The notes below the pieces were generated by a model, which was given only the letters and a program-made list of their open reading frames with translations, searched no databases and had not been told where the DNA came from. The position numbers and the translations under genes were made by a program. This document shows positions 6,246 through 35,452 of a stretch of 49,971 bases of DNA, one piece after another. The DNA lies in the NCBI GenBank assembly GCA_937870915.1, contig CALMZQ010000067.1, positions 1 through 49,971 on the forward strand. The letters are read 5' to 3'. Numbering within the stretch: position 1 is the first letter of the stretch; the number at the start of each line of letters is the position of its first letter. This stretch comes from an uncultured Ignavibacteria bacterium (GTDB lineage Bacteria > Bacteroidota > Ignavibacteria > Kapaibacteriales > Kapaibacteriaceae).

Positions 6246-8159
6246 ATGCTCAGCCCCTTCCTTCTGTCTTGCTTTCTCGCCCTCTCTCCGGCTTCTGCCG
6301 AAGACAGTGTGCGCGTCGATACAACGGTGATGCCGGCGGTGAATGTTGTGGCCGATAGGTGGCTTACGGATGAGACGGGTGCAGGCATGCCCAAAACGCG
6401 ACTTGATAGCGAGCTTCTCACACGCCTCGCACCACAATCGTTGATGTCTGTGCTGCCTCTGATTCCGGGTGTATTTGTGCGCGATTACGGTGGGCTGGGT
6501 GGATTAAAAACATTCTCGATCAGAGGGGGCTCCTCGGCACAGGCACTGGTCTTGATTGATGGATCGCGCATGTCCTCTGCTCAAAGCGGAATGGTGGACC
6601 TTGGTTTGTTGCCGGCACGTTTTGTGGAGAATGTTGATGTGATCCGAGGTGGTGTGAGTGCTCTTTATGGAGCTAATGCTCTTACGGGCGTTATGAACGT
6701 ACAACTGCGCGTACCATCCACACCATCTCTGCGGGCGTTTGCCGGCGGTGGCTCATTCGATGAATGGAGGCTTGCGCTTGGAGCAACAGCAAACATTGGA
6801 TCGGTGCGGATAGGCGCAGACGTTGAATCGCTCGGAAGTGCCGGGTCCTTCCCGTTCACAACGGATCAGTTCGGTCAATTGTATGAGATCAATAGACAGA
6901 ATGGCGACGTGCGCTCAACGTTTGGTACAGTTCGCTGCGAATCCGATGTGTTAGGTTCGGTTACGACCTTTGTGAGAACAAGTGAACGAGGTGTTCCGGG
7001 AGCAGTTGTGCAAGGCAACGTTGTAAACGCACGAGCACGCCTAACAGATAATGACATCGTGGGACTACTCAGCATCCCATTAGCTACCACTGCTATCGGA
7101 GAGATTACGGCAAACGGTTCAGCGCGGGTACTCGATCAACACTATGTTGATCCGGATGCTACAATCACGGGTCCGGACGGGATTGATGTTGCCTATCTGC
7201 AACACGATGTATCTATTGGTGCTACACTTCGAGGGGCAATGTCCGATCTGCTGCACACCACACGCCTTGATGCAGGCTATGCAGATCTCACGGGTGATGA
7301 GATAGTGTCGGATACAGGGGCTGTAGTTATTCGTAGATCCATTGGACTCTCCACCGACTTGCAATGGGCGGTGGATTCGTATTTCGATCTACGAGTTGCC
7401 CTACGCCTTGATGGATTCTCCGACATGGGATGGGCTGCTTCGCCCCTTATCGCACTTCACTATGCTTTGAATCCATTGGTGTCACTTCGTACGTCGTGGA
7501 GTTATAATTTCCGTCCACCATCTTTCAATGAATTATACTTCCTCAACTATGGAACTCGTTCATTGCAGCCCGAACGATCGCATTCCTTTGACGTTGGTGT
7601 TGTGGCACGTCCATTTTCCTGGTTAAGCATAGACGTAGATGCCTTTGGCCTTCTCACGCACAACCTCATCGTGTCGGTGCCGGTTAGCCCCGTTATCACT
7701 AGTGCACAAAACGTTGGATCTGCTCGGACTATTGGGCTTGAGCTCACGTCACGAGGATCGTGGTTGGATGGCAGGTTGATAGCTCAGTGGTCCTACACAT
7801 TACAACACGTTACAGATCAAACAGGAAGAGTCGGTCTTGATGGAACGATGATCCCATATGCAGTGCCGGAGCTGGCTTCCGTGATGGTGCAATGGGATGA
7901 TGTGGTCTGGAATGGTTCGATCAATTGGACCTATACCGGCTATCGGTACGCACAGGCCGGCGGCGAATACACCTCCCTTTTGCAACCATTCGCCTTGGTT
8001 GGTGCGCAGATCGGCGTTCATGTACGGGGACTAACCACACGAGCAGATGTGCGCATCCAGGTGGACAATGTCTTTGATGTCTCGTATCAGGTGATAAGGG
8101 GCTTCCCAATGCCCGGACGAGTTGTTCGCCTTGCTACATCTATCGAGGTGTTGCCATGA
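6246..8159 (+). CDS. BtuB-like TonB-dependent outer-membrane receptor
   Basis: A 637-residue TonB-dependent receptor that would import a scarce ligand across the outer membrane using TonB energy. It has a signal peptide (MLSPFLLSCFLALSPASAED). Residues ~50-150 form the plug domain (SIRGGSSAQALVLIDG, DVIRGGVSALYGANALTG) and the rest is a 22-strand-type barrel ending in NVFDVSYQ and FPMPGRVVRLA. The short length, the lack of a carboxypeptidase-like N-terminal domain and the C-terminal PMPGR motif resemble BtuB-type vitamin B12 receptors more than SusC-type glycan receptors. The two following genes, one encoding a BtuG-like propeller, support a cobalamin-like ligand, but this is inferred. No Shine-Dalgarno is seen. 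Its TGA overlaps the next ATG (ATGA). Confidence 0.85.
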   Translation: MLSPFLLSCFLALSPASAEDSVRVDTTVMPAVNVVADRWLTDETGAGMPKTRLDSELLTRLAPQSLMSVLPLIPGVFVRDYGGLGGLKTFSIRGGSSAQALVLIDGSRMSSAQSGMVDLGLLPARFVENVDVIRGGVSALYGANALTGVMNVQLRVPSTPSLRAFAGGGSFDEWRLALGATANIGSVRIGADVESLGSAGSFPFTTDQFGQLYEINRQNGDVRSTFGTVRCESDVLGSVTTFVRTSERGVPGAVVQGNVVNARARLTDNDIVGLLSIPLATTAIGEITANGSARVLDQHYVDPDATITGPDGIDVAYLQHDVSIGATLRGAMSDLLHTTRLDAGYADLTGDEIVSDTGAVVIRRSIGLSTDLQWAVDSYFDLRVALRLDGFSDMGWAASPLIALHYALNPLVSLRTSWSYNFRPPSFNELYFLNYGTRSLQPERSHSFDVGVVARPFSWLSIDVDAFGLLTHNLIVSVPVSPVITSAQNVGSARTIGLELTSRGSWLDGRLIAQWSYTLQHVTDQTGRVGLDGTMIPYAVPELASVMVQWDDVVWNGSINWTYTGYRYAQAGGEYTSLLQPFALVGAQIGVHVRGLTTRADVRIQVDNVFDVSYQVIRGFPMPGRVVRLATSIEVLP

Positions 8160-9205
8160 TACAACCACAGATATCTGAGGAATGTCAGCGCTTACACGAT
8201 GCCGCAGTTGCTGAGTTGAAGGAGACCTATGTTGACCCAACAACCGGATACACAGTGCTCACTCGGCTAGCTCATGAACGCCGAGGTGACTGCTGTGGAA
8301 GTGGATGCAGACATTGCCCATTCGGTTGGAAAAATGTGATCGGGAAGGGGCTTCTTTCGGTGATCATTATGCTGACCGTGCTAACCTTTGCAACGAACGC
8401 ACAATACTACCCGCAGCGTTGTGACAGTGTGGTCCGCCTTACTCCCGGTGTAGGACAATCCACCGGTCAAGGTCCGATCTTCTTTCCAACCAACATCTTC
8501 ACGGGCCCAGCGCCCCTTGCCTCTGATACCGTACCATTGACCGAGCCACGAGACGTGTGTTCGATCGGACTTGGAGGAACGATTGTTGTGGGGTTCCGTT
8601 CTGCCGTAATCGTTGACGGTCCGGGAGCCGACTTCACGATCTTCGAAAACGCATTCCGTTTTCTGGGAAGGATCTACGCAGAGCCTGCCATGGTAGAGGT
8701 GAGTTACGACGGCGTGATGTGGAAGGCATTCCCGTTCGATTCTCTCACATTGCGGGGCTGCGCCGGAATCACACCTACAACAGGGTTTAATCCTTTTGAT
8801 GCAACGGTCAGTGGAGGTGATACCTTTGATCTTGCAACGATTGGTGTTGACACTGTGCGATGGATTCGCATTACGGATGTAACGTCCATCATACGCAATG
8901 ATCCATCTCATCCGTTCTATGATCCAACGCTATCCGGTTTTGATCTTGATGTTGTTGTTGGCCTGCATGCCATACCGGCAGCCTTCACGCAGTCGTTAAC
9001 AGATGTTGTACAAAGTTCTCTTGTGAGAGTAGATGCTCCACGTGCTTCAACACTCTCTGTCTTTGACATACAAGGCACTGTCCTTTATAGCTCCTCCGTT
9101 CCGCCAGGAGTGATCATGTTCGATCTCGCCCCCTTTACATCGGGCGCATTGTTTGTTGTGATCGACGATGGTGCGCAGCGCTCAACGCTCAAGGTGTTAC
9201 GATGA
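8156..9205 (+). CDS. DUF5522-like Cys-rich domain fused in frame to a T9SS-exported surface protein
   Basis: The open frame is 349 codons and joins two normally separate modules. Residues ~1-60 resemble the small cytoplasmic Cys-rich DUF5522 family (YTVLTRLAHERRGDCC, then CCGSGCRHCPFGW). Then comes a classical signal-peptide-like stretch (LLSVIIMLTVLTFATNAQ), a beta-rich domain seen in cell-surface proteins beside B12-type receptors (VDGPGADFTIFENAF, MVEVSYDGVMWKAF, WIRITDV) and a T9SS type A-like tail (LSVFDIQGTVLY, TSGALFVVI). There is no stop between them. An internal GTG at 8335 or ATG at 8371 would start a clean exported protein, with GGTTGGA before the GTG. So this is either a fusion or two nested genes. 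Overlaps both neighbours by 4 bases. Confidence 0.75.
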   Translation: MIQPQISEECQRLHDAAVAELKETYVDPTTGYTVLTRLAHERRGDCCGSGCRHCPFGWKNVIGKGLLSVIIMLTVLTFATNAQYYPQRCDSVVRLTPGVGQSTGQGPIFFPTNIFTGPAPLASDTVPLTEPRDVCSIGLGGTIVVGFRSAVIVDGPGADFTIFENAFRFLGRIYAEPAMVEVSYDGVMWKAFPFDSLTLRGCAGITPTTGFNPFDATVSGGDTFDLATIGVDTVRWIRITDVTSIIRNDPSHPFYDPTLSGFDLDVVVGLHAIPAAFTQSLTDVVQSSLVRVDAPRASTLSVFDIQGTVLYSSSVPPGVIMFDLAPFTSGALFVVIDDGAQRSTLKVLR

Positions 9206-10266
9206 GATTCGTCATTTATGTAATTGTGGCCCTTGTAGTTGTGCGTTGTGTGCCCGTGCCTTCGGCTCCCGATGTAACAACAACACCTCTTACGCCTGGT
9301 GGAGTGTTTGTTGTCTGCGAAGGATTGTGGCGTCAGAACAATGCAACATTGTCCTACTGCACGCCATCCGGTACATCTGAGCGTGATGTTGTATCAACTC
9401 GCAATGCTGATCTACGTTTAGGAGATACCGGAAGTGATATTCTTGTCCGTGGAGACAGCGTTTACGTTTGCGCCAGTTCGTCCGGCAGCATCGAGGTATT
9501 CCATCGCAACACCGGAATTTGGCAAGGCCGCATTCTCTTTGAACGGGGAAGAGAACCCTACAAACTTGCCTTGCTCAATGACACGTCAGCCGTGTGCTCC
9601 ATTCTCAATGAAGACTGCATCGCCGAGGTTCACCTCCGCAAGCTCACCGTTCGCGTTGCAAAGGCCCCCACAGGTCCGGCACCAGAAGGTCTGTGCGTTA
9701 TGGGAAACAATATCTACGTTGCCAACAGCGGCCTCGGAGACCTTCGGAGCAAAGAAGAGGGGGCAGGCACCGTTAGCATATTGGACGTGCGAGATCTGCG
9801 CATTGTAAACACCGTGCGTGGTCTGCCAAACGTGATGGATTGTATTGCCGATGCACGGCGTAATCGAGTTTGGATCGTGTACCGCAACCTCACATCGCTA
9901 CCCGACTCACTTGGCGGCGTGGTTCTCTTTGATCCGGCTACGAATTCCATCATCGATCATCAACGATTTGCTTCTCCCAAGGGGCTTGTGGTAGACCCAG
10001 AAACAGGTCGCATCTACGTCCTTCACCTCATGGGTGTTCACTCGTATGATCATGATACACGCAGTACAACGCCCCTTATCGAACATCGTTCCGGCAACGG
10101 CAACGACGTGTGGTACTCACTCGGTTGGTGGAGGGAACAGAACATCCTCCTTGTGGGCAACGCACGCTCGTACGTTACGGATGGCGAAGTGATAGCAATC
10201 GACCTTAATGGAAACGTCCGCTTTCGAAGTAGCGTTGGACTGAATCCAGCAGCGTTTGAAGATTAG
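9202..10266 (+). CDS. BtuG-like beta-propeller surface lipoprotein (YncE/DUF5074-like)
   Basis: A 354-residue exported protein. The N-terminal hydrophobic segment ends in VVVRC, a non-canonical but plausible lipobox. The rest is a seven-bladed YncE-like propeller with repeated blade signatures (SDILVRGDSVYVCASSSGSIEVF, EGLCVMGNNIYVANSG, KGLVVDPETGRIYVL, ILLVGNARSYVTDGEVIAID split over the fold). In Bacteroides, BtuG lipoproteins of this fold capture vitamin B12 for BtuB. The same gene order makes that role plausible here, though ligand identity cannot be read from sequence. Start ATG 9202 overlaps the previous stop (ATGA). Its own TAG stop is the first unit of the TAGTTAC array. Confidence 0.75.
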   Translation: MRFVIYVIVALVVVRCVPVPSAPDVTTTPLTPGGVFVVCEGLWRQNNATLSYCTPSGTSERDVVSTRNADLRLGDTGSDILVRGDSVYVCASSSGSIEVFHRNTGIWQGRILFERGREPYKLALLNDTSAVCSILNEDCIAEVHLRKLTVRVAKAPTGPAPEGLCVMGNNIYVANSGLGDLRSKEEGAGTVSILDVRDLRIVNTVRGLPNVMDCIADARRNRVWIVYRNLTSLPDSLGGVVLFDPATNSIIDHQRFASPKGLVVDPETGRIYVLHLMGVHSYDHDTRSTTPLIEHRSGNGNDVWYSLGWWREQNILLVGNARSYVTDGEVIAIDLNGNVRFRSSVGLNPAAFED

Positions 10267-10305
10267 TTACTAGTTACTAGTTACGAGTTACTAGTTACGA
10301 GTTAC
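10264..10305 (+). repeat. Heptamer tandem array, (T/G)AGTTAC x6, starting at the stop codon
   Basis: Six contiguous 7-base units (TAGTTAC, TAGTTAC, TAGTTAC, GAGTTAC, TAGTTAC, GAGTTAC). The TAG stop of the beta-propeller gene is the first three bases of unit one. The 7-base period places TAG in successive reading frames. Confidence 0.9.
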
Positions 10306-10372
10306 ACATAACGTCATAACGTCATAACTGTCATAACGTCATAACGTCATAATTGTCATTACGTCATTTCTC
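10306..10372 (-). repeat. Octamer/nonamer tandem array, TGACGTTA-type on the minus strand
   Basis: About seven 8-9 base units. On the minus strand, the sense of the SUI1 gene downstream at 10400, they read TGACGTTA with variants such as TGACAATTA and TGACAGTTA. Each unit starts with TGA. A related array follows the peroxiredoxin gene at 34921-34981. Confidence 0.85.
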
Positions 10373-10374
10373 TT

Positions 10375-10394
10375 CGTCGGGCTAAAGCCCGACG
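10375..10394. terminator. Perfect GC-rich hairpin between convergent genes
   Basis: A 9-bp stem (10375-10383 with 10386-10394) with a minimal AA loop, in practice about four unpaired bases. It lies 5 bases after the SUI1 gene stop (minus strand) and probably ends its transcript. Confidence 0.65.
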
Positions 10395-16630: not shown

Positions 16631-17499
16631 TCTACCTCCTCCTGTTGCTGCAGCAACTCATTTCATCAAGTACCCATCTTGTTGCCAAGAACGTAACGAT
16701 CACGTTACATCCAACAACCGTAGTTCTGATCCGGGGACTGTTTACCTGTGTTGCGTTTGGCATCTATGTACTGATACGCCGGAGTAAGGTGCGCACGATC
16801 GACCGAGAGGACATCCCCAGACTACTCCTTCTTGGGTTGATCAACATGCCGATCAATCAGCTCCTCTTTATTTGGGGTGTGAAATACACAACAGCTCCAA
16901 ATGCCTCACTTGCCTATGCACTCACGCCGGCCTTTGTTGTGATTCTCCTCCTGATGTTCCGAAAGGAACATCCCGGATGGAAGCGATTGTTGGGAGTGGT
17001 AGTGGCATTTGTTGGTGCAGCGATCGTTCTTGTGGACAGAGGTGCGGTTCTCTCGTCAGAACAGACACTCGGCAATGTGATGGTCCTGGGCGCTAGCATG
17101 TCTTGGGCGGGCTTCACCGTTTTGGGCAGACCCATGGTTGCAAAGTATGGTCCGGTCTATGCCACTGCCTTAACCTTCTTTGCCGGACTTGCACTCTACA
17201 TCCCAGTATGGGCACTGATCCCGATTCACGATCCGGCAATTGCCCTTACCGATGAAACGTGGCTGGCTACATGGTCACAACTCTTCTATCTCGGCGTGAT
17301 CACCTCCGGTGTTGGGTATGGGCTTTGGTACTACGCCCTCAACCATATGGACGCCGGACGTGTAGCCGTATTCAATAACCTCCAGCCGATCATCACCTCT
17401 GTCCTAGCCTTGATCATCTTTGGCACGGAACCTACACCACTCTTCTTGGTAGGGGGCGTTATAGCCCTTGTTGGAGTGATCATCACCCAACGCGGTTGA
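16627..17499 (+). CDS. EamA/DMT-family transporter
   Basis: A 290-residue inner-membrane protein with ten predicted transmembrane helices arranged as two EamA repeats. The first repeat contains LLGLINMPINQLLFIWGVKYT and SLAYALTPAFVVILLLM. The second contains LGVITSGVGYGLWYYALNHMDAGRVAVFNNLQPIITSVLALIIFG and ends VGGVIALVGVIITQRG. Family members export or import small metabolites such as amino acids, nucleotides or lipid-linked sugars; the substrate cannot be told. GTG 16627 overlaps the glycosyltransferase stop. The tight order FemAB-like, GT4, EamA suggests co-transcription. Confidence 0.88.
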   Translation: MIYLLLLLQQLISSSTHLVAKNVTITLHPTTVVLIRGLFTCVAFGIYVLIRRSKVRTIDREDIPRLLLLGLINMPINQLLFIWGVKYTTAPNASLAYALTPAFVVILLLMFRKEHPGWKRLLGVVVAFVGAAIVLVDRGAVLSSEQTLGNVMVLGASMSWAGFTVLGRPMVAKYGPVYATALTFFAGLALYIPVWALIPIHDPAIALTDETWLATWSQLFYLGVITSGVGYGLWYYALNHMDAGRVAVFNNLQPIITSVLALIIFGTEPTPLFLVGGVIALVGVIITQRG

Positions 17500-32935: not shown

Positions 32936-33313
32936 ATGAACTTTCCTGCAGACCTCAAATACACAACCGATCACGAGTGGATCCGCGTTGAAGGTGATGT
33001 TGGAACAATCGGCGTAACGGACCATGCCCAAGGCGAACTTGGAGACGTAGTCTACGTTGACATTCCGGACGCAGCAGCAACAGTGGCAAAGGGCGACACC
33101 TTTGGCTCGATTGAGGCAGTGAAGACTGTTGCCGATCTCTTTGCCCCCGTAAGCGGTCAGATCATTGAAGTGAATGCCGTAAACGCAGCACCAGACGCCG
33201 TCAACAAAGAACCCTACGATGGCGGTTGGCTTGTAAAAATCAAGCTCTCCGATCCATCTGAACTCGACGCGCTCCTGAATGTTGATGCGTATAAGGCGCT
33301 GATCGGCGCTTGA
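32936..33313 (+). CDS. gcvH: Glycine cleavage system H protein
   Basis: A 125-residue lipoyl carrier that moves the aminomethyl group between the P, T and L proteins of glycine cleavage. Lys63 in FGSIEAVKTVADLFAPVSG is the lipoylation site, and the typical N-terminus YTTDHEWIRVEGDVGTIGVTD and the NKEPYDGGWLVKIKLSD segment are present. The other gcv genes are absent nearby. It is encoded 3 bases after accC, so biotin and lipoyl carriers share a transcript. Its TGA stop abuts the GCGAATA array. Confidence 0.95.
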   Translation: MNFPADLKYTTDHEWIRVEGDVGTIGVTDHAQGELGDVVYVDIPDAAATVAKGDTFGSIEAVKTVADLFAPVSGQIIEVNAVNAAPDAVNKEPYDGGWLVKIKLSDPSELDALLNVDAYKALIGA

Positions 33314-33390
33314 GCGAATAGCGAATAGCGAATAGCGAATAGCGAATAGCGAATAGCGAATAGCGAATAGCGAATAGCGAATAGCGAATA
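33314..33390 (+). repeat. Heptamer tandem array GCGAATA x11 after gcvH
   Basis: Eleven perfect 7-base units (77 bases) start at the base after the gcvH stop codon. Read in phase TAGCGAA, each unit holds a TAG that shifts by one frame per unit. It is the longest perfect tandem repeat in the window. Confidence 0.97.
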
Positions 33391-33432
33391 GCGTTCGTCA
33401 TTGCTAGCGACTCCAACGACCAAGTAACGAAA

Positions 33433-33473: not shown

Positions 33474-33508
33474 TTCGCTATTCGCTGCTCGCTATTCGCT
33501 GTTCGCTG
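33474..33508 (-). repeat. Heptamer array (C/T)AGCGA(A/G) x5 on the minus strand
   Basis: Five 7-base units. In the sense of the minus-strand gene that ends at 33509 they read CAGCGAA, CAGCGAA, TAGCGAG, CAGCGAA, TAGCGAA and begin at the first base after its TAA stop. It is the inverted, degenerate counterpart of the 11-unit array at 33314. Confidence 0.92.
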
Positions 33509-33922
33509 TTACTTCGCCTGCGCTGCCTTAACTGCATCTTGCAGGGCCTGAACGATTTCCTTGAACTTTTCAGCTTCAGCGCCCTTAAGGGAGCCACGTT
33601 GCATGAGGGTGAAGAGGTTTTGGACCTGCTCCATCTTCATTTCCACCGTTACCATGTCATCGTCCTTCTTTGTGGCCTTGTTGGCTGTTTCAATAACATC
33701 AACAAGGATCTTGCGAGTGTCGAGATAGGCGTCCACTTCAGTGCCGCGGATATCAACGCCGGCAATGAACTGCGTAACGGCCTTAACATCTGCAAGCTTC
33801 ATTTTAGGCTTGATCATTACAGGAGCTTGGGCAGCAGGAGTGAGTTGTCCGCCTTGGGCAGAAGTGTCAACTGTACCTACGAAGAGGGCGGCCACGAGGG
33901 CCAGAATTGCGAAAAGACGCAT
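33509..33922 (-). CDS. Small exported helical protein of unknown function
   Basis: A 137-residue protein with a clear signal peptide (MRLFAILALVAALFVGTVDTSAQ). The mature part is Lys/Glu/Ala-rich and helical (KMKLADVKAVTQFIAGVDI, YLDTRKILVDVIETANKATKK, EKFKEIVQALQDAVKAAQAK), suggesting a small periplasmic helical bundle. I recognise no family. The TAA stop abuts the minus-strand heptamer array. Start ATG 33922 fits the signal peptide. Confidence 0.65.
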   Translation of the reverse strand: MRLFAILALVAALFVGTVDTSAQGGQLTPAAQAPVMIKPKMKLADVKAVTQFIAGVDIRGTEVDAYLDTRKILVDVIETANKATKKDDDMVTVEMKMEQVQNLFTLMQRGSLKGAEAEKFKEIVQALQDAVKAAQAK

Positions 33923-34316: not shown

Positions 34317-34691
34317 ATGGCTAAACGCACAACGACTCGTGTAACGCAGAGAGTCCTCACTCAGGACAAGCAGATAGCTACGGCTGTTCTGACCCTGAAG
34401 GATTACAACCCTGCGAACAAGGAGTTCACTGCGCAGCGGTTGCGGGAAGCACTTAAGGAACTAGAGGAAGCTACGGCAGCCGAGCAAAAAGCGCTCGAGG
34501 CCGTAGCAAAAGCCAGAGAGGCCTCGGTCCGTATTGAAGGTGAATTTCATGAGCTTGTCCTGGGCACAAAGCGCCAGGTGCTTGCTCAATACGGCGACGA
34601 TTCAGACGAGATCACGCGTCTCGGTATGAAGAAGAAGTCGGAACGCAAGTATGGACGTCCCCGTAAAGGGGCTTCCAATGAGCGCAGCTAA
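34317..34691 (+). CDS. Small basic coiled-coil protein of unknown function
   Basis: A 124-residue cytoplasmic protein. It begins Lys/Arg/Thr-rich (MAKRTTTRVTQRVL), then a Glu/Ala-rich coiled coil (~residues 40-85, LREALKELEEATAAEQKALE) and a C-terminal motif VLAQYGDDSDEITRLGMKKKSERKYGR. I believe this YGxDSDExxxLGxKKKSExK tail marks a widespread uncharacterised family; no role is known. It has its own promoter and a strong terminator, so it is monocistronic and may be well expressed. Confidence 0.7.
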   Translation: MAKRTTTRVTQRVLTQDKQIATAVLTLKDYNPANKEFTAQRLREALKELEEATAAEQKALEAVAKAREASVRIEGEFHELVLGTKRQVLAQYGDDSDEITRLGMKKKSERKYGRPRKGASNERS

Positions 34692-34763: not shown

Positions 34764-34809
34764 GAAACAAAAAACGGTCACTCGGAAGAGTGACCGTTTT
34801 TTTTGTTTC
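34764..34809. terminator. Very strong terminator hairpin
   Basis: A CGGTCACTC/GAGTGACCG stem with a GGAA tetraloop is extended on both sides by A6/T8 and GAAAC/GTTTC, so the arms pair over nearly 20 bases. It is a textbook Rho-independent terminator in both directions. Confidence 0.95.
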
Positions 34810-34866
34810 GAGGTCCCTCGTCGCTGCGCTCCTCGGGATGACGCTGCCGTCGCGGAATTTTGATAA

Positions 34867-34905
34867 AGAAATGGTGGGTCCATCTTCGATGAACCCACCA
34901 TTTCT
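34867..34905. terminator. Long perfect hairpin (13 bp plus inner 4 bp)
   Basis: AGAAATGGTGGGT (34867-34879) pairs with its complement (34893-34905) and an inner CATC/GATG stem (34881-34884 with 34888-34891) caps it. It probably terminates the peroxiredoxin transcript coming from the right, beyond the TGA-rich array. Confidence 0.65.
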
Positions 34906-34920
34906 AGGTAGACAACGAGT

Positions 34921-34981
34921 GAGTCATAACGTCATAGTGGTCATAACGTCATAGTAGTCACTACGTCATTTCGTCATTTCA
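34921..34981 (-). repeat. TGACGTTA-type tandem array after the peroxiredoxin gene
   Basis: About seven 8-9 base units. On the minus strand they read TGAAA, TGACGAAA, TGACGTAG, TGACTACTA, TGACGTTA, TGACCACTA, TGACGTTA. The first TGA is the peroxiredoxin stop codon itself. It is the same repeat family as at 10306-10372. Confidence 0.88.
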
Positions 34982-35452
34982 GCTAAGTGCTTCTGCCGCT
35001 GCATAGATCTCATCATAGTTCGGTTCTACACCAGGGTTTTCGGTTACGTGGACGTGACGGATGATGCCTTCGGCATCGATCACGAAGGTTGCGCGGCTTG
35101 AGCGAGTAAGGCCCTGGATGCCGGCGAAGTTCTCGAAGAGAACGTCATAGGCGCGGATGGTGTCGAGATTGAAGTCTGACAGGAGTGGGAACGTGAGGCC
35201 ATTGGCTTCTGCGAAGGCTGCGTTCGAGAACGGAATGTCAGCGGAAACGCCCAGGACAGCTGCTTTGGCGGAATTGAGGCGCTGGATAGCGCTCTGGAAA
35301 GAGCACATTTCCGCCTTGCAAACGCCTGTAAATGCTGCCGGGAAGAATGCGAGGATCACTGTTTGCCCCTTAAAAGAAGAGAGGGTAACAGGGGTCTTTG
35401 TAGTGTCGAGAAGCGTAAAGTCCGGTGCGGCCGTGCCGACGGATAGTGCCAT
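34979..35452 (-). CDS. Peroxiredoxin (AhpC/TSA family, AhpE/BCP-like)
   Basis: A 157-residue thiol peroxidase that reduces hydrogen peroxide and organic peroxides. The peroxidatic Cys45 sits in FFPAAFTGVCKAEMCSF; Cys50, five residues on, could be a resolving cysteine as in some BCP-type enzymes. VTLSSFKGQTVIL, SADIPFSNAAFAEANGL and TFVIDAEGIIRHV complete the thioredoxin fold. It is cytoplasmic. The stop codon is the first unit of a TGA-rich array, and a -7 element is seen 41 bases before the start. Confidence 0.93.
   Translation of the reverse strand: MALSVGTAAPDFTLLDTTKTPVTLSSFKGQTVILAFFPAAFTGVCKAEMCSFQSAIQRLNSAKAAVLGVSADIPFSNAAFAEANGLTFPLLSDFNLDTIRAYDVLFENFAGIQGLTRSSRATFVIDAEGIIRHVHVTENPGVEPNYDEIYAAAEALS

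What the first reader, a model, noticed from the sequence alone, without database searches (positions are those of the whole stretch)
34921..34981. The TGACGTTA array family recurs after the peroxiredoxin gene
After the peroxiredoxin TGA, on the minus strand, come TGACGAAA, TGACGTAG, TGACTACTA, TGACGTTA, TGACCACTA, TGACGTTA. This is the same family as 10306-10372, 24.5 kb away, and again it lies 3' of a minus-strand gene with TGA first in each unit. Two unrelated genes ending in the same array, with gene stop equal to unit one, suggests the array is a mobile or convergently selected 3'-end module.
Basis: seen in the sequence. Interest (0 to 1): 0.55.

Follow-up and report, generated by a model that had tools for sequence, protein, structure and literature searches.

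The report
Stop-codon-anchored short tandem repeat arrays
In this uncultured bacterium and some of its relatives, many genes end in a run of 7-9-letter repeats that begins at or next to the gene's own stop codon, and the repeat units usually carry further stop codons: an odd and little-described place for repeat DNA to settle.

Summary
The array is real: on the minus strand, seven TGAC units (8-9 nt pitch) follow the peroxiredoxin stop. It belongs to a genome-wide family (115 matches to TGACGTTATGACGTTA against 3 for the reversed control) that is at background in the 59 relatives searched. It is one of at least four unit families here (RTGACRNW, GAAYAGH, GTAACTN/TAGTTAC, TARNNTGY). Array edges lie within 3 nt of a stop codon in 64 of 153 cases (random placement 22.8), with no excess at start codons. 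Arrays that abut a stop mostly run their stop-bearing strand in the gene's sense. Orthologs show that the protein usually ends where it did, but the stop codon itself has often changed. Relatives carry arrays of the same or other families at some of the same gene ends. I read these as repeat blocks copied into gene ends and tolerated because most units re-supply a stop; a selected fail-safe role is possible but unproven. 'Gene stop = unit one' is inexact for both window arrays but true of many others. Precedents exist in Xanthomonas and Beggiatoaceae: new variant of a known kind.

The parts
34919..34976 (-). the array in question: seven TGAC units of 8-9 nt, in the sense strand of the peroxiredoxin gene, starting two bases after its stop
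34979..35452 (-). peroxiredoxin gene (AhpC-TSA) whose stop precedes the array
34867..34905 (.). hairpin (AGAAATGGTGGGT ... ACCCACCATTTCT) just beyond the array
   Evidence: read directly from the sequence; not a hit of the terminator scan
34769..34802 (.). terminator-like hairpin with T run between the convergent genes; a similar hairpin lies at this place in the relative L041, which has no array
   Evidence: likeness judged by eye
34317..34691 (+). convergent neighbour gene, no Pfam family found; its end is recognisable in L041
10309..10366 (-). sister TGAC array, seven units, 33 nt beyond the stop of a SUI1-domain gene
10264..10305 (+). TAGTTAC x6 array; its first TAG is the stop codon of gene 9202-10266
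33313..33393 (+). AGCGAAT x11.6 array flush with the stop of the glycine cleavage H gene (32936-33313)
33475..33507 (-). GAAYAG-family array flush with the stop of the minus gene 33509-33922

Best explanation
The array is one member of a set of short tandem-repeat families (units of 7-9 nt with a conserved core of 4-6 nt that mostly contains a stop triplet) that sit at gene 3' ends in this genome. Shown here: they begin at or within a few bases of stop codons, the stop-bearing strand mostly runs in the gene's sense when they abut the stop, the ancestral protein end is usually kept while the stop codon often differs, and families turn over between species at some of the same gene ends. Inferred mechanism: ready-made blocks of units are copied into gene ends from other arrays, by template switching or recombination primed by the few bases that the core shares with a stop-codon context. 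They overwrite the resident stop and the start of the 3' UTR and survive because most units supply a stop, so the protein ends where it did or a few codons away. Blocks copied into coding or promoter DNA are lost. Stops in all three frames downstream of the gene are then mainly a by-product, possibly co-opted.
For: Position: 64 of 153 3' edges within 3 nt of a stop against 22.8 at random, 8 of 87 against 7.8 at starts; in the 49 loci not chosen for arrays 30 of 59 against 12.5. Orientation of abutting arrays: GAAYAG 21:2, TGAC 18:4, TARNNTGY 8:2. Shared families at many loci: 115, 258 and 166 pattern matches. Stop replaced, protein end kept: 11 of 19 array genes have the ortholog's length and 16 of 19 are within 3 codons, but only 7 of 19 keep its stop codon against 79 of 115 array-free genes (p 0.01). 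Two genes ending in ..LR read CGT TAG with an array here and CGC TAA or CGA TGA without one in G001, so the wobble base before the stop differs as well. Few two-unit beginnings at stops, as expected if blocks arrive ready-made. Units vary in linker and in length (8, 9, 7 nt) with a constant core.
Against: No empty and filled site was seen in near-identical strains, and no copying enzyme was found. Random copying would not by itself favour the stop over the rest of the 3' UTR; the priming step is an assumption. Core bases outside the stop triplet are as conserved as the stop, which this reading does not predict. Ortholog numbers are small (19), and any frame that runs into a stop-bearing array is closed by it, so part of the flushness is automatic; the equal lengths in 11 of 19 argue that it is not all of it. 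Co-occurrence in G226 (4 of 14 against 3 of 78) would also fit selection.
Confidence: 0.5

Rival explanations
1. Selected fail-safe translation stops: tandem stop codons in all frames right after the gene catch ribosomes that read through or slip, keeping them off the downstream hairpin or the convergent neighbour.
For: All three frames have a stop within +3..+35 in 47 of 75 array ends against 11 of 228 others. Spacers of 40-200 bp hold an array in 24 of 38 convergent, 30 of 141 tandem and 4 of 50 divergent cases. Different families serve the same gene end in different species (L151, L187, L198). In the fourth family the variable base keeps TAA or TAG.
Against: 28 of 75 array ends lack a stop in at least one frame and 6 have none in +3..+35. 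Several GAACAG arrays with few or no stops abut TGA just as exactly. Core bases outside the stop are equally conserved. Only 33 of 437 gene ends in the loci not chosen for arrays have an abutting array. Ho and Hurst report no fail-safe stop selection in eubacteria (PMC6764699, abstract and outline seen).
Confidence: 0.2
2. Ordinary microsatellites: replication slippage expanded a segment that happened to include the stop codon, and similar units arose at many loci or drifted between them.
For: 7-8 nt periods, copy-number variation, intergenic placement; heptamers are known to be over-represented in bacterial genomes (PMC4692102, passages read).
Against: The same few units occur at many unrelated loci. 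Neighbouring units differ in linker and length while the core stays constant. Among 593 genes without arrays, two-unit repeats starting at the stop are about as rare as elsewhere: 1 at lag 7 and 0 at lag 8, background 0.2-0.4 per offset, though 3 at lag 7 start three bases later.
Confidence: 0.12
3. Binding-site arrays for an RNA- or DNA-binding protein acting on 3' UTRs, as proposed for TAACTGA repeats in Beggiatoaceae.
For: Conserved core with free linker and flexible 7-9 nt pitch, as expected of repeated recognition sites.
Against: At least four different cores would each need a binder, and families change between species in the genus. No candidate protein was sought beyond two families.
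Confidence: 0.1
4. A transposase-driven palindromic or REP-like element family whose arms are tandem arrays.
For: Some arrays are inverted pairs around a short loop; L189 and L123 share a near-identical loop, and the L189 pair folds strongly (z -15.3 and -12.9).
Against: Array 3' flanks as a group are little more folded than others (median z -1.11 against -0.78; z below -2 in 43% against 31%), and many arrays are single. Y1_Tnp occurs in 21 of 25 genomes searched, mostly ones without TGAC arrays.
Confidence: 0.05

Closest known systems
GGGAATC / GGGGA(C/T)T heptamer repeats of Xanthomonas and Nostoc (PMC4692102; passages and sections 13, 15, 16 read)
   Same: Dispersed tandem heptamers; [quoted passage not shown] under-represented between divergent genes; [quoted passage not shown]
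   Different: Those units are G-rich and form quadruplexes in vitro, with a preference for four units; these have no G tracts, mostly carry a stop triplet, and fall into several families in one genome.
TAACTGA direct repeats of Beggiatoaceae, Cyanobacteria and some Bacteroidetes (PMC4679880; abstract, passages, sections 12 and 24 read)
   Same: Dispersed heptamers with stops in all three frames in forward orientation; GTAACTG, seen here, differs by one base from ATAACTG, a rotation of TAACTGA.
   Different: In the best studied genome most lie just upstream of start codons; here the excess is at stop codons, and several further families occur.
REP / BIME elements and their RAYT transposases (recalled; PMC3733652, PMC1525189 and PMC12306157 seen in a search listing only)
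   Same: Extragenic, dispersed, often near gene 3' ends (recalled).
   Different: REPs are single palindromes of 20-40 bp (listing); these are tandem arrays of 7-9 nt units, only some in inverted pairs.
Short tandemly repeated repetitive (STRR) heptamers of heterocystous cyanobacteria (recalled; PMC4692102 mentions heptanucleotide repeats in Calothrix)
   Same: Tandem heptamers dispersed through the genome.
   Different: Not compared here by sequence or by position.

Membership tests
TAACTGA direct repeats | unit TAACTGA | tested here: not met
   units here are RTGACRNW, GAAYAGH, GTAACTN, TARNNTGY; GTAACTG is one base away
TAACTGA direct repeats | mostly just upstream of start codons in forward orientation | tested here: not met
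   start-codon edges 8 of 87 within 3 nt against 7.8 at random; stop-codon edges 64 of 153 against 22.8
TAACTGA direct repeats | stops in all three frames on the forward strand | tested here: met
   47 of 75 array ends against 11 of 228 others; 28 of 75 do not show it
Xanthomonas/Nostoc heptamer repeats | G tracts able to form quadruplexes | tested here: not met
   unit columns show no G tract
Xanthomonas/Nostoc heptamer repeats | downstream repeats close to or overlapping the stop, on the coding strand | tested here: met
Xanthomonas/Nostoc heptamer repeats | rare between divergent genes | tested here: met
   10 of 103 divergent, 33 of 105 convergent, 45 of 492 tandem spacers; for 40-200 bp spacers 4 of 50, 24 of 38, 30 of 141. 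Over all lengths divergent spacers are not rarer than tandem ones, which are mostly very short
REP/BIME elements | single 20-40 bp palindrome as the unit | tested here: not met
   units are 7-9 nt direct repeats; some inverted pairs exist
REP/BIME elements | associated Y1 (RAYT-type) transposase | tested here: inconclusive
   2 Y1_Tnp matches in own genome, but 21 of 25 genomes searched have it
intrinsic terminators | G+C-rich hairpin followed by a T run | tested here: not met
   the peroxiredoxin array is no hit of the scan, whereas 34769-34802 is; that scan's 3 hits equal chance (2.8), so it is weak evidence; array flanks as a group are little more folded than others
STRR heptamers of cyanobacteria | sequence and position of the units | not tested
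   recalled only

The most novel reading that the evidence does not exclude
A bacterium in which a sizeable minority of genes carry selected, interchangeable tandem-stop arrays that begin at the stop codon and insulate convergent and tandem neighbours from translational readthrough: fail-safe stops of the kind that bacteria are reported not to use.
Probability: 0.2. Interest if true: 0.8.

Novelty: new variant of a known kind. Interest (0 to 1): 0.55.

Why it matters
If the copying reading is right, repeat DNA has a route into compact genomes that uses the stop codon as its landing place, shifting stop codon use (TAG in 36 of 75 array genes against 119 of 619 others) and sometimes trimming protein ends. 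If the selected reading is right, it is a natural counter-example to the report that eubacteria show no selection for fail-safe stops (PMC6764699, abstract). Either way, gene ends closed by exchangeable repeat families offer a clear system for measuring birth and turnover of 7-9 nt arrays.

Tried and rejected
Coding function of the arrays: rejected, because steps of 7, 8 and 9 nt break the frame and most units carry stops. Reverse transcriptase or Y1 transposase as driver: own genome has 1 RVT_1 and 2 Y1_Tnp matches; G001, which has TAGTTAC arrays, has 0 and 1; Y1_Tnp is found in 21 of 25 genomes. Array as a hairpin terminator in general: not supported. Growth from two-unit seeds at stops: little sign of it. 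IMG/VR contigs: GAATAGC x3 in 29 stretches and a TGAC pattern in 8; there 32 of 49 GAAYAG arrays and 1 of 10 TGAC arrays have a sense frame of at least 80 codons closing near the array start, but any frame entering a stop-bearing array is closed by it, so I do not count this as evidence. TAGTTAC across the phylum: 3 of 395 genomes (own, G001, one distant genome). Sparing of ribosome sites before start codons: looked at, nothing firm.

Limits and dropped rows. My first gene finder failed because masked contigs spoiled its training and was repaired. One search counted the window in both own-genome groups through a string-comparison slip, so I use instead. Of 80 own-genome stretches fetched, those with a run of 50 or more N were left out; with the window, 70 loci and 975,203 bases were used. 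29 of 161 non-coding repeats outside the four families were left out of position and orientation counts, and genes below a score of 10 or 15 were left out, by test. Twenty stretches were chosen because they hold TGAC arrays. The other 60 were chosen by contig number or length, but C3 and C41 had already shown array hits, so that set is not strictly blind. Ortholog comparisons use the best hit in the stretches I held, not whole genomes, and some G001 stretches were fetched around arrays. Gene calls come from a home-made finder, without a check against a standard caller.

Full report
What is there. On the minus strand the peroxiredoxin gene (34979-35452; Pfam AhpC-TSA) ends in TGA. Two bases later begin seven units: TGACGAAA TGACGTAG TGACTACTA TGACGTTA TGACCACTA TGACGTTA TGACTCAC. 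The sister array at 10309-10366 lies 33 nt beyond the stop of a SUI1-domain gene, behind a palindrome. The window holds more arrays, of other units, at gene ends: TAGTTAC x6 starting with the TAG stop of gene 9202-10266, AGCGAAT x11.6 flush with the stop of the glycine cleavage H gene at 33313, and a GAAYAG array flush with the stop of the minus gene at 33509.

Genome-wide. TGACGTTATGACGTTA with up to 2 mismatches occurs 115 times in the 3.32 Mb genome against 3 for the reversed control; TGAC-N4-TGAC-N4-TGAC occurs 255 times against 18. The 59 relatives have 0-4 matches each, no more than their reversed controls. GAATAGCGAATAGCGAATAG with up to 1 mismatch occurs 258 times here and 0-2 times in each of the other 196 class genomes. 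Three units of TAGTTAC with up to 2 mismatches occur 166 times here, 133 in G001 (same genus), 11 in G174 (another family) and 0-3 in the others of 197. The best peroxiredoxin matches among named genomes are Candidatus Kapaibacterium and Ignavibacteria or Bacteroidetes metagenome-assembled genomes, so this is probably a Kapabacteria-type organism; its own record is unnamed here.

Unit structure. Middle units sampled by their neighbours alone show TGAC bases 94-98% conserved, position 5 a purine in 126 of 133, positions 6-7 nearly free and position 8 a purine in 133 of 133. The other families have the same design: GAA[Y]AG[H], GTAAC[T/C]N(N), TA[R]NNTG[Y]. Steps between TGAC cores are 8 nt in 214, 9 in 73 and 7 in 25 cases. 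This does not look like a young slippage repeat.

Position. In 975 kb of own genome (70 loci, window included) there are 132 non-coding arrays of the four families and 29 other repeats. Spacers of 40-200 bp carry an array in 24 of 38 convergent, 30 of 141 tandem and 4 of 50 divergent cases. Array edges lie within 3 nt of a stop codon in 64 of 153 cases; sliding each array at random inside its own spacer gives 22.8, and 0 of 2000 trials reach 64. At start codons the count is 8 of 87 against 7.8. In the 49 loci not chosen for arrays (641 kb) the figures are 30 of 59 against 12.5 and 5 of 43 against 4.3, and 33 of 437 gene ends have an abutting array. Abutting arrays (edge from -40 to +8 of the stop) are oriented: GAAYAG 21 sense and 2 antisense, TGAC 18 and 4, TARNNTGY 8 and 2; in the GTAAC family TAGTTAC is sense in 14 and GTAAC in 6. 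Arrays 9-60 nt away are not: TGAC 8 and 6, GAAYAG 2 and 4. In many genes the stop is the unit's stop..gaa TAG CGAATAGCGAATAG..cgt TAG AGTGTTAG..cg TAA CTCGTAACTAG..ta TGA CAATTATGACG. In L151 one array of about 40 bp fills a convergent spacer and holds both stops. In L189 and L123 an array, a short loop and an inverted array fill the space between two stops. In L139, L145 and L173 two converging genes carry arrays of different families. The gene's stop triplet recurs 7-9 nt later in 40 of 75 array ends against 4.4% of 595 others. All three frames have a stop in +3..+35 in 47 of 75 against 11 of 228, and TAG is the stop in 36 of 75 against 119 of 619. Against a purely stop-based rule: 28 of 75 lack a stop in some frame, 6 of 75 have none in that stretch, and several GAACAG arrays with few or no stops still abut a TGA exactly.

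Relatives. The peroxiredoxin and glycine cleavage H genes have orthologs in L041 (genome G226) with no such array after the stop, while a hairpin resembling one in the window is present in each case (by eye). In 19 array genes with a best ortholog of at least 60% identity, 11 have the ortholog's length and 16 are within 3 codons; 7 are shorter and 1 longer (controls: 88 of 115 equal, 10 shorter, 17 longer). Only 7 of 19 keep the ortholog's stop codon against 79 of 115 (Fisher p 0.01; the length difference alone has p 0.10). L191 14157 is ten residues shorter than in G226 and L127 7305 aligns 25 short. Two genes ending in ..LR read CGT TAG with an array here and CGC TAA or CGA TGA without one in G001. 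G226 orthologs show an array in 4 of 14 cases where own has one and in 3 of 78 where it has none (p 0.009). Some shared sites have related families (two genes of L140; L189 in part), others different ones (L151: GTAACTC here, TGACNAA in G226; L187 and L198 differ from G001). G001 has stop-abutting arrays of TAGTTAC, GTGACRA and TAGGTTTTG type, and G174 has TAGTTAC and AAATTTC arrays at stops. The habit therefore recurs with different unit sequences.

How it most likely works. Shown: anchoring at stops, orientation when abutting, a changed stop with the protein end mostly kept, a few families at many loci, and turnover between species. Inferred: blocks of units are copied between gene ends, primed by short matches between unit core and stop-codon context, and kept because most units supply a stop. 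Unexplained by this: why core bases outside the stop are as conserved as the stop. A selected fail-safe role fits the all-frame stops and the convergent spacers but not the arrays without stops. No driver enzyme was found. Two-unit beginnings at stops are rare among 593 array-free genes. Array flanks are only slightly more folded than others (median z -1.11 against -0.78), but inverted pairs fold very strongly (L189 z -15.3).

What is known. The nearest positional precedent is the Xanthomonas GGGAATC heptamer, which lies on the coding strand close to or over stop codons and is under-represented between divergent genes (PMC4692102; passages and sections 13, 15, 16 read). The nearest in sequence is TAACTGA of Beggiatoaceae, one base from the GTAACTG unit seen here, but mostly placed upstream of starts (PMC4679880; abstract, passages, sections 12 and 24 read). 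Ho and Hurst report no fail-safe stop selection in eubacteria (PMC6764699; abstract and outline read). My searches listed no report of several stop-bearing repeat families anchored at stop codons in one genome, nor of such repeats in Kapabacteria; most papers of subscription journals are not in that library.

Verdict. New variant of a known kind; interest 0.55.

Noticed in passing
window 10375-10394; L128 near 7856-7870 and 7926-7940: Palindrome of the type CGGGCTTTAGCCCG / CGGGCTAAAGCCCG beside TGAC arrays in more than one place.
   Followed up: no
window 34810-34843; L138 near 16795-16825: A string of the form GAGGTCCCTCG...GGGATGACG near arrays at two loci, which looks like another dispersed repeat.
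   Followed up: no
L041 after the glycine cleavage H stop; L275 after the ortholog of L127 10900: In the relative G226, palindromes such as GGTCGCGTCGCCGACGCGACC begin directly after TAG stops, so stop-anchored repeats there are not only tandem arrays.
   Followed up: no
L175 7266-7331, L176 3512-3579, L194 18649-18713, L130 10505-10571; G226 L284: Tandem 28-nt unit of the form GGCTCCCGACGTCACTCCGGGAGAGTAA (self-complementary parts, ends in TAA), with a similar unit in G226.
   Followed up: no
L132 1212-1263, L164 3067-3204: 13-nt tandem unit (ACCTGTGTAGGTG / GTGACCTATGCAG) filling two convergent spacers and starting at the stop codon.
   Followed up: no
L126 10197-10310, L168 8932-9070, L189 8720-8915: 24-nt in-frame tandem repeats inside predicted genes (8-residue repeats).
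   Followed up: no
G000:C129:17282-17704 (L270): A reverse transcriptase domain (RVT_1) in the own genome; the ten other genomes of the genus in that search had no match.
   Followed up: partly
IMG/VR stretches L295-L323: GAATAGC arrays also occur in contigs of a viral collection (29 stretches), so this unit is not confined to the window's organism.
   Followed up: partly
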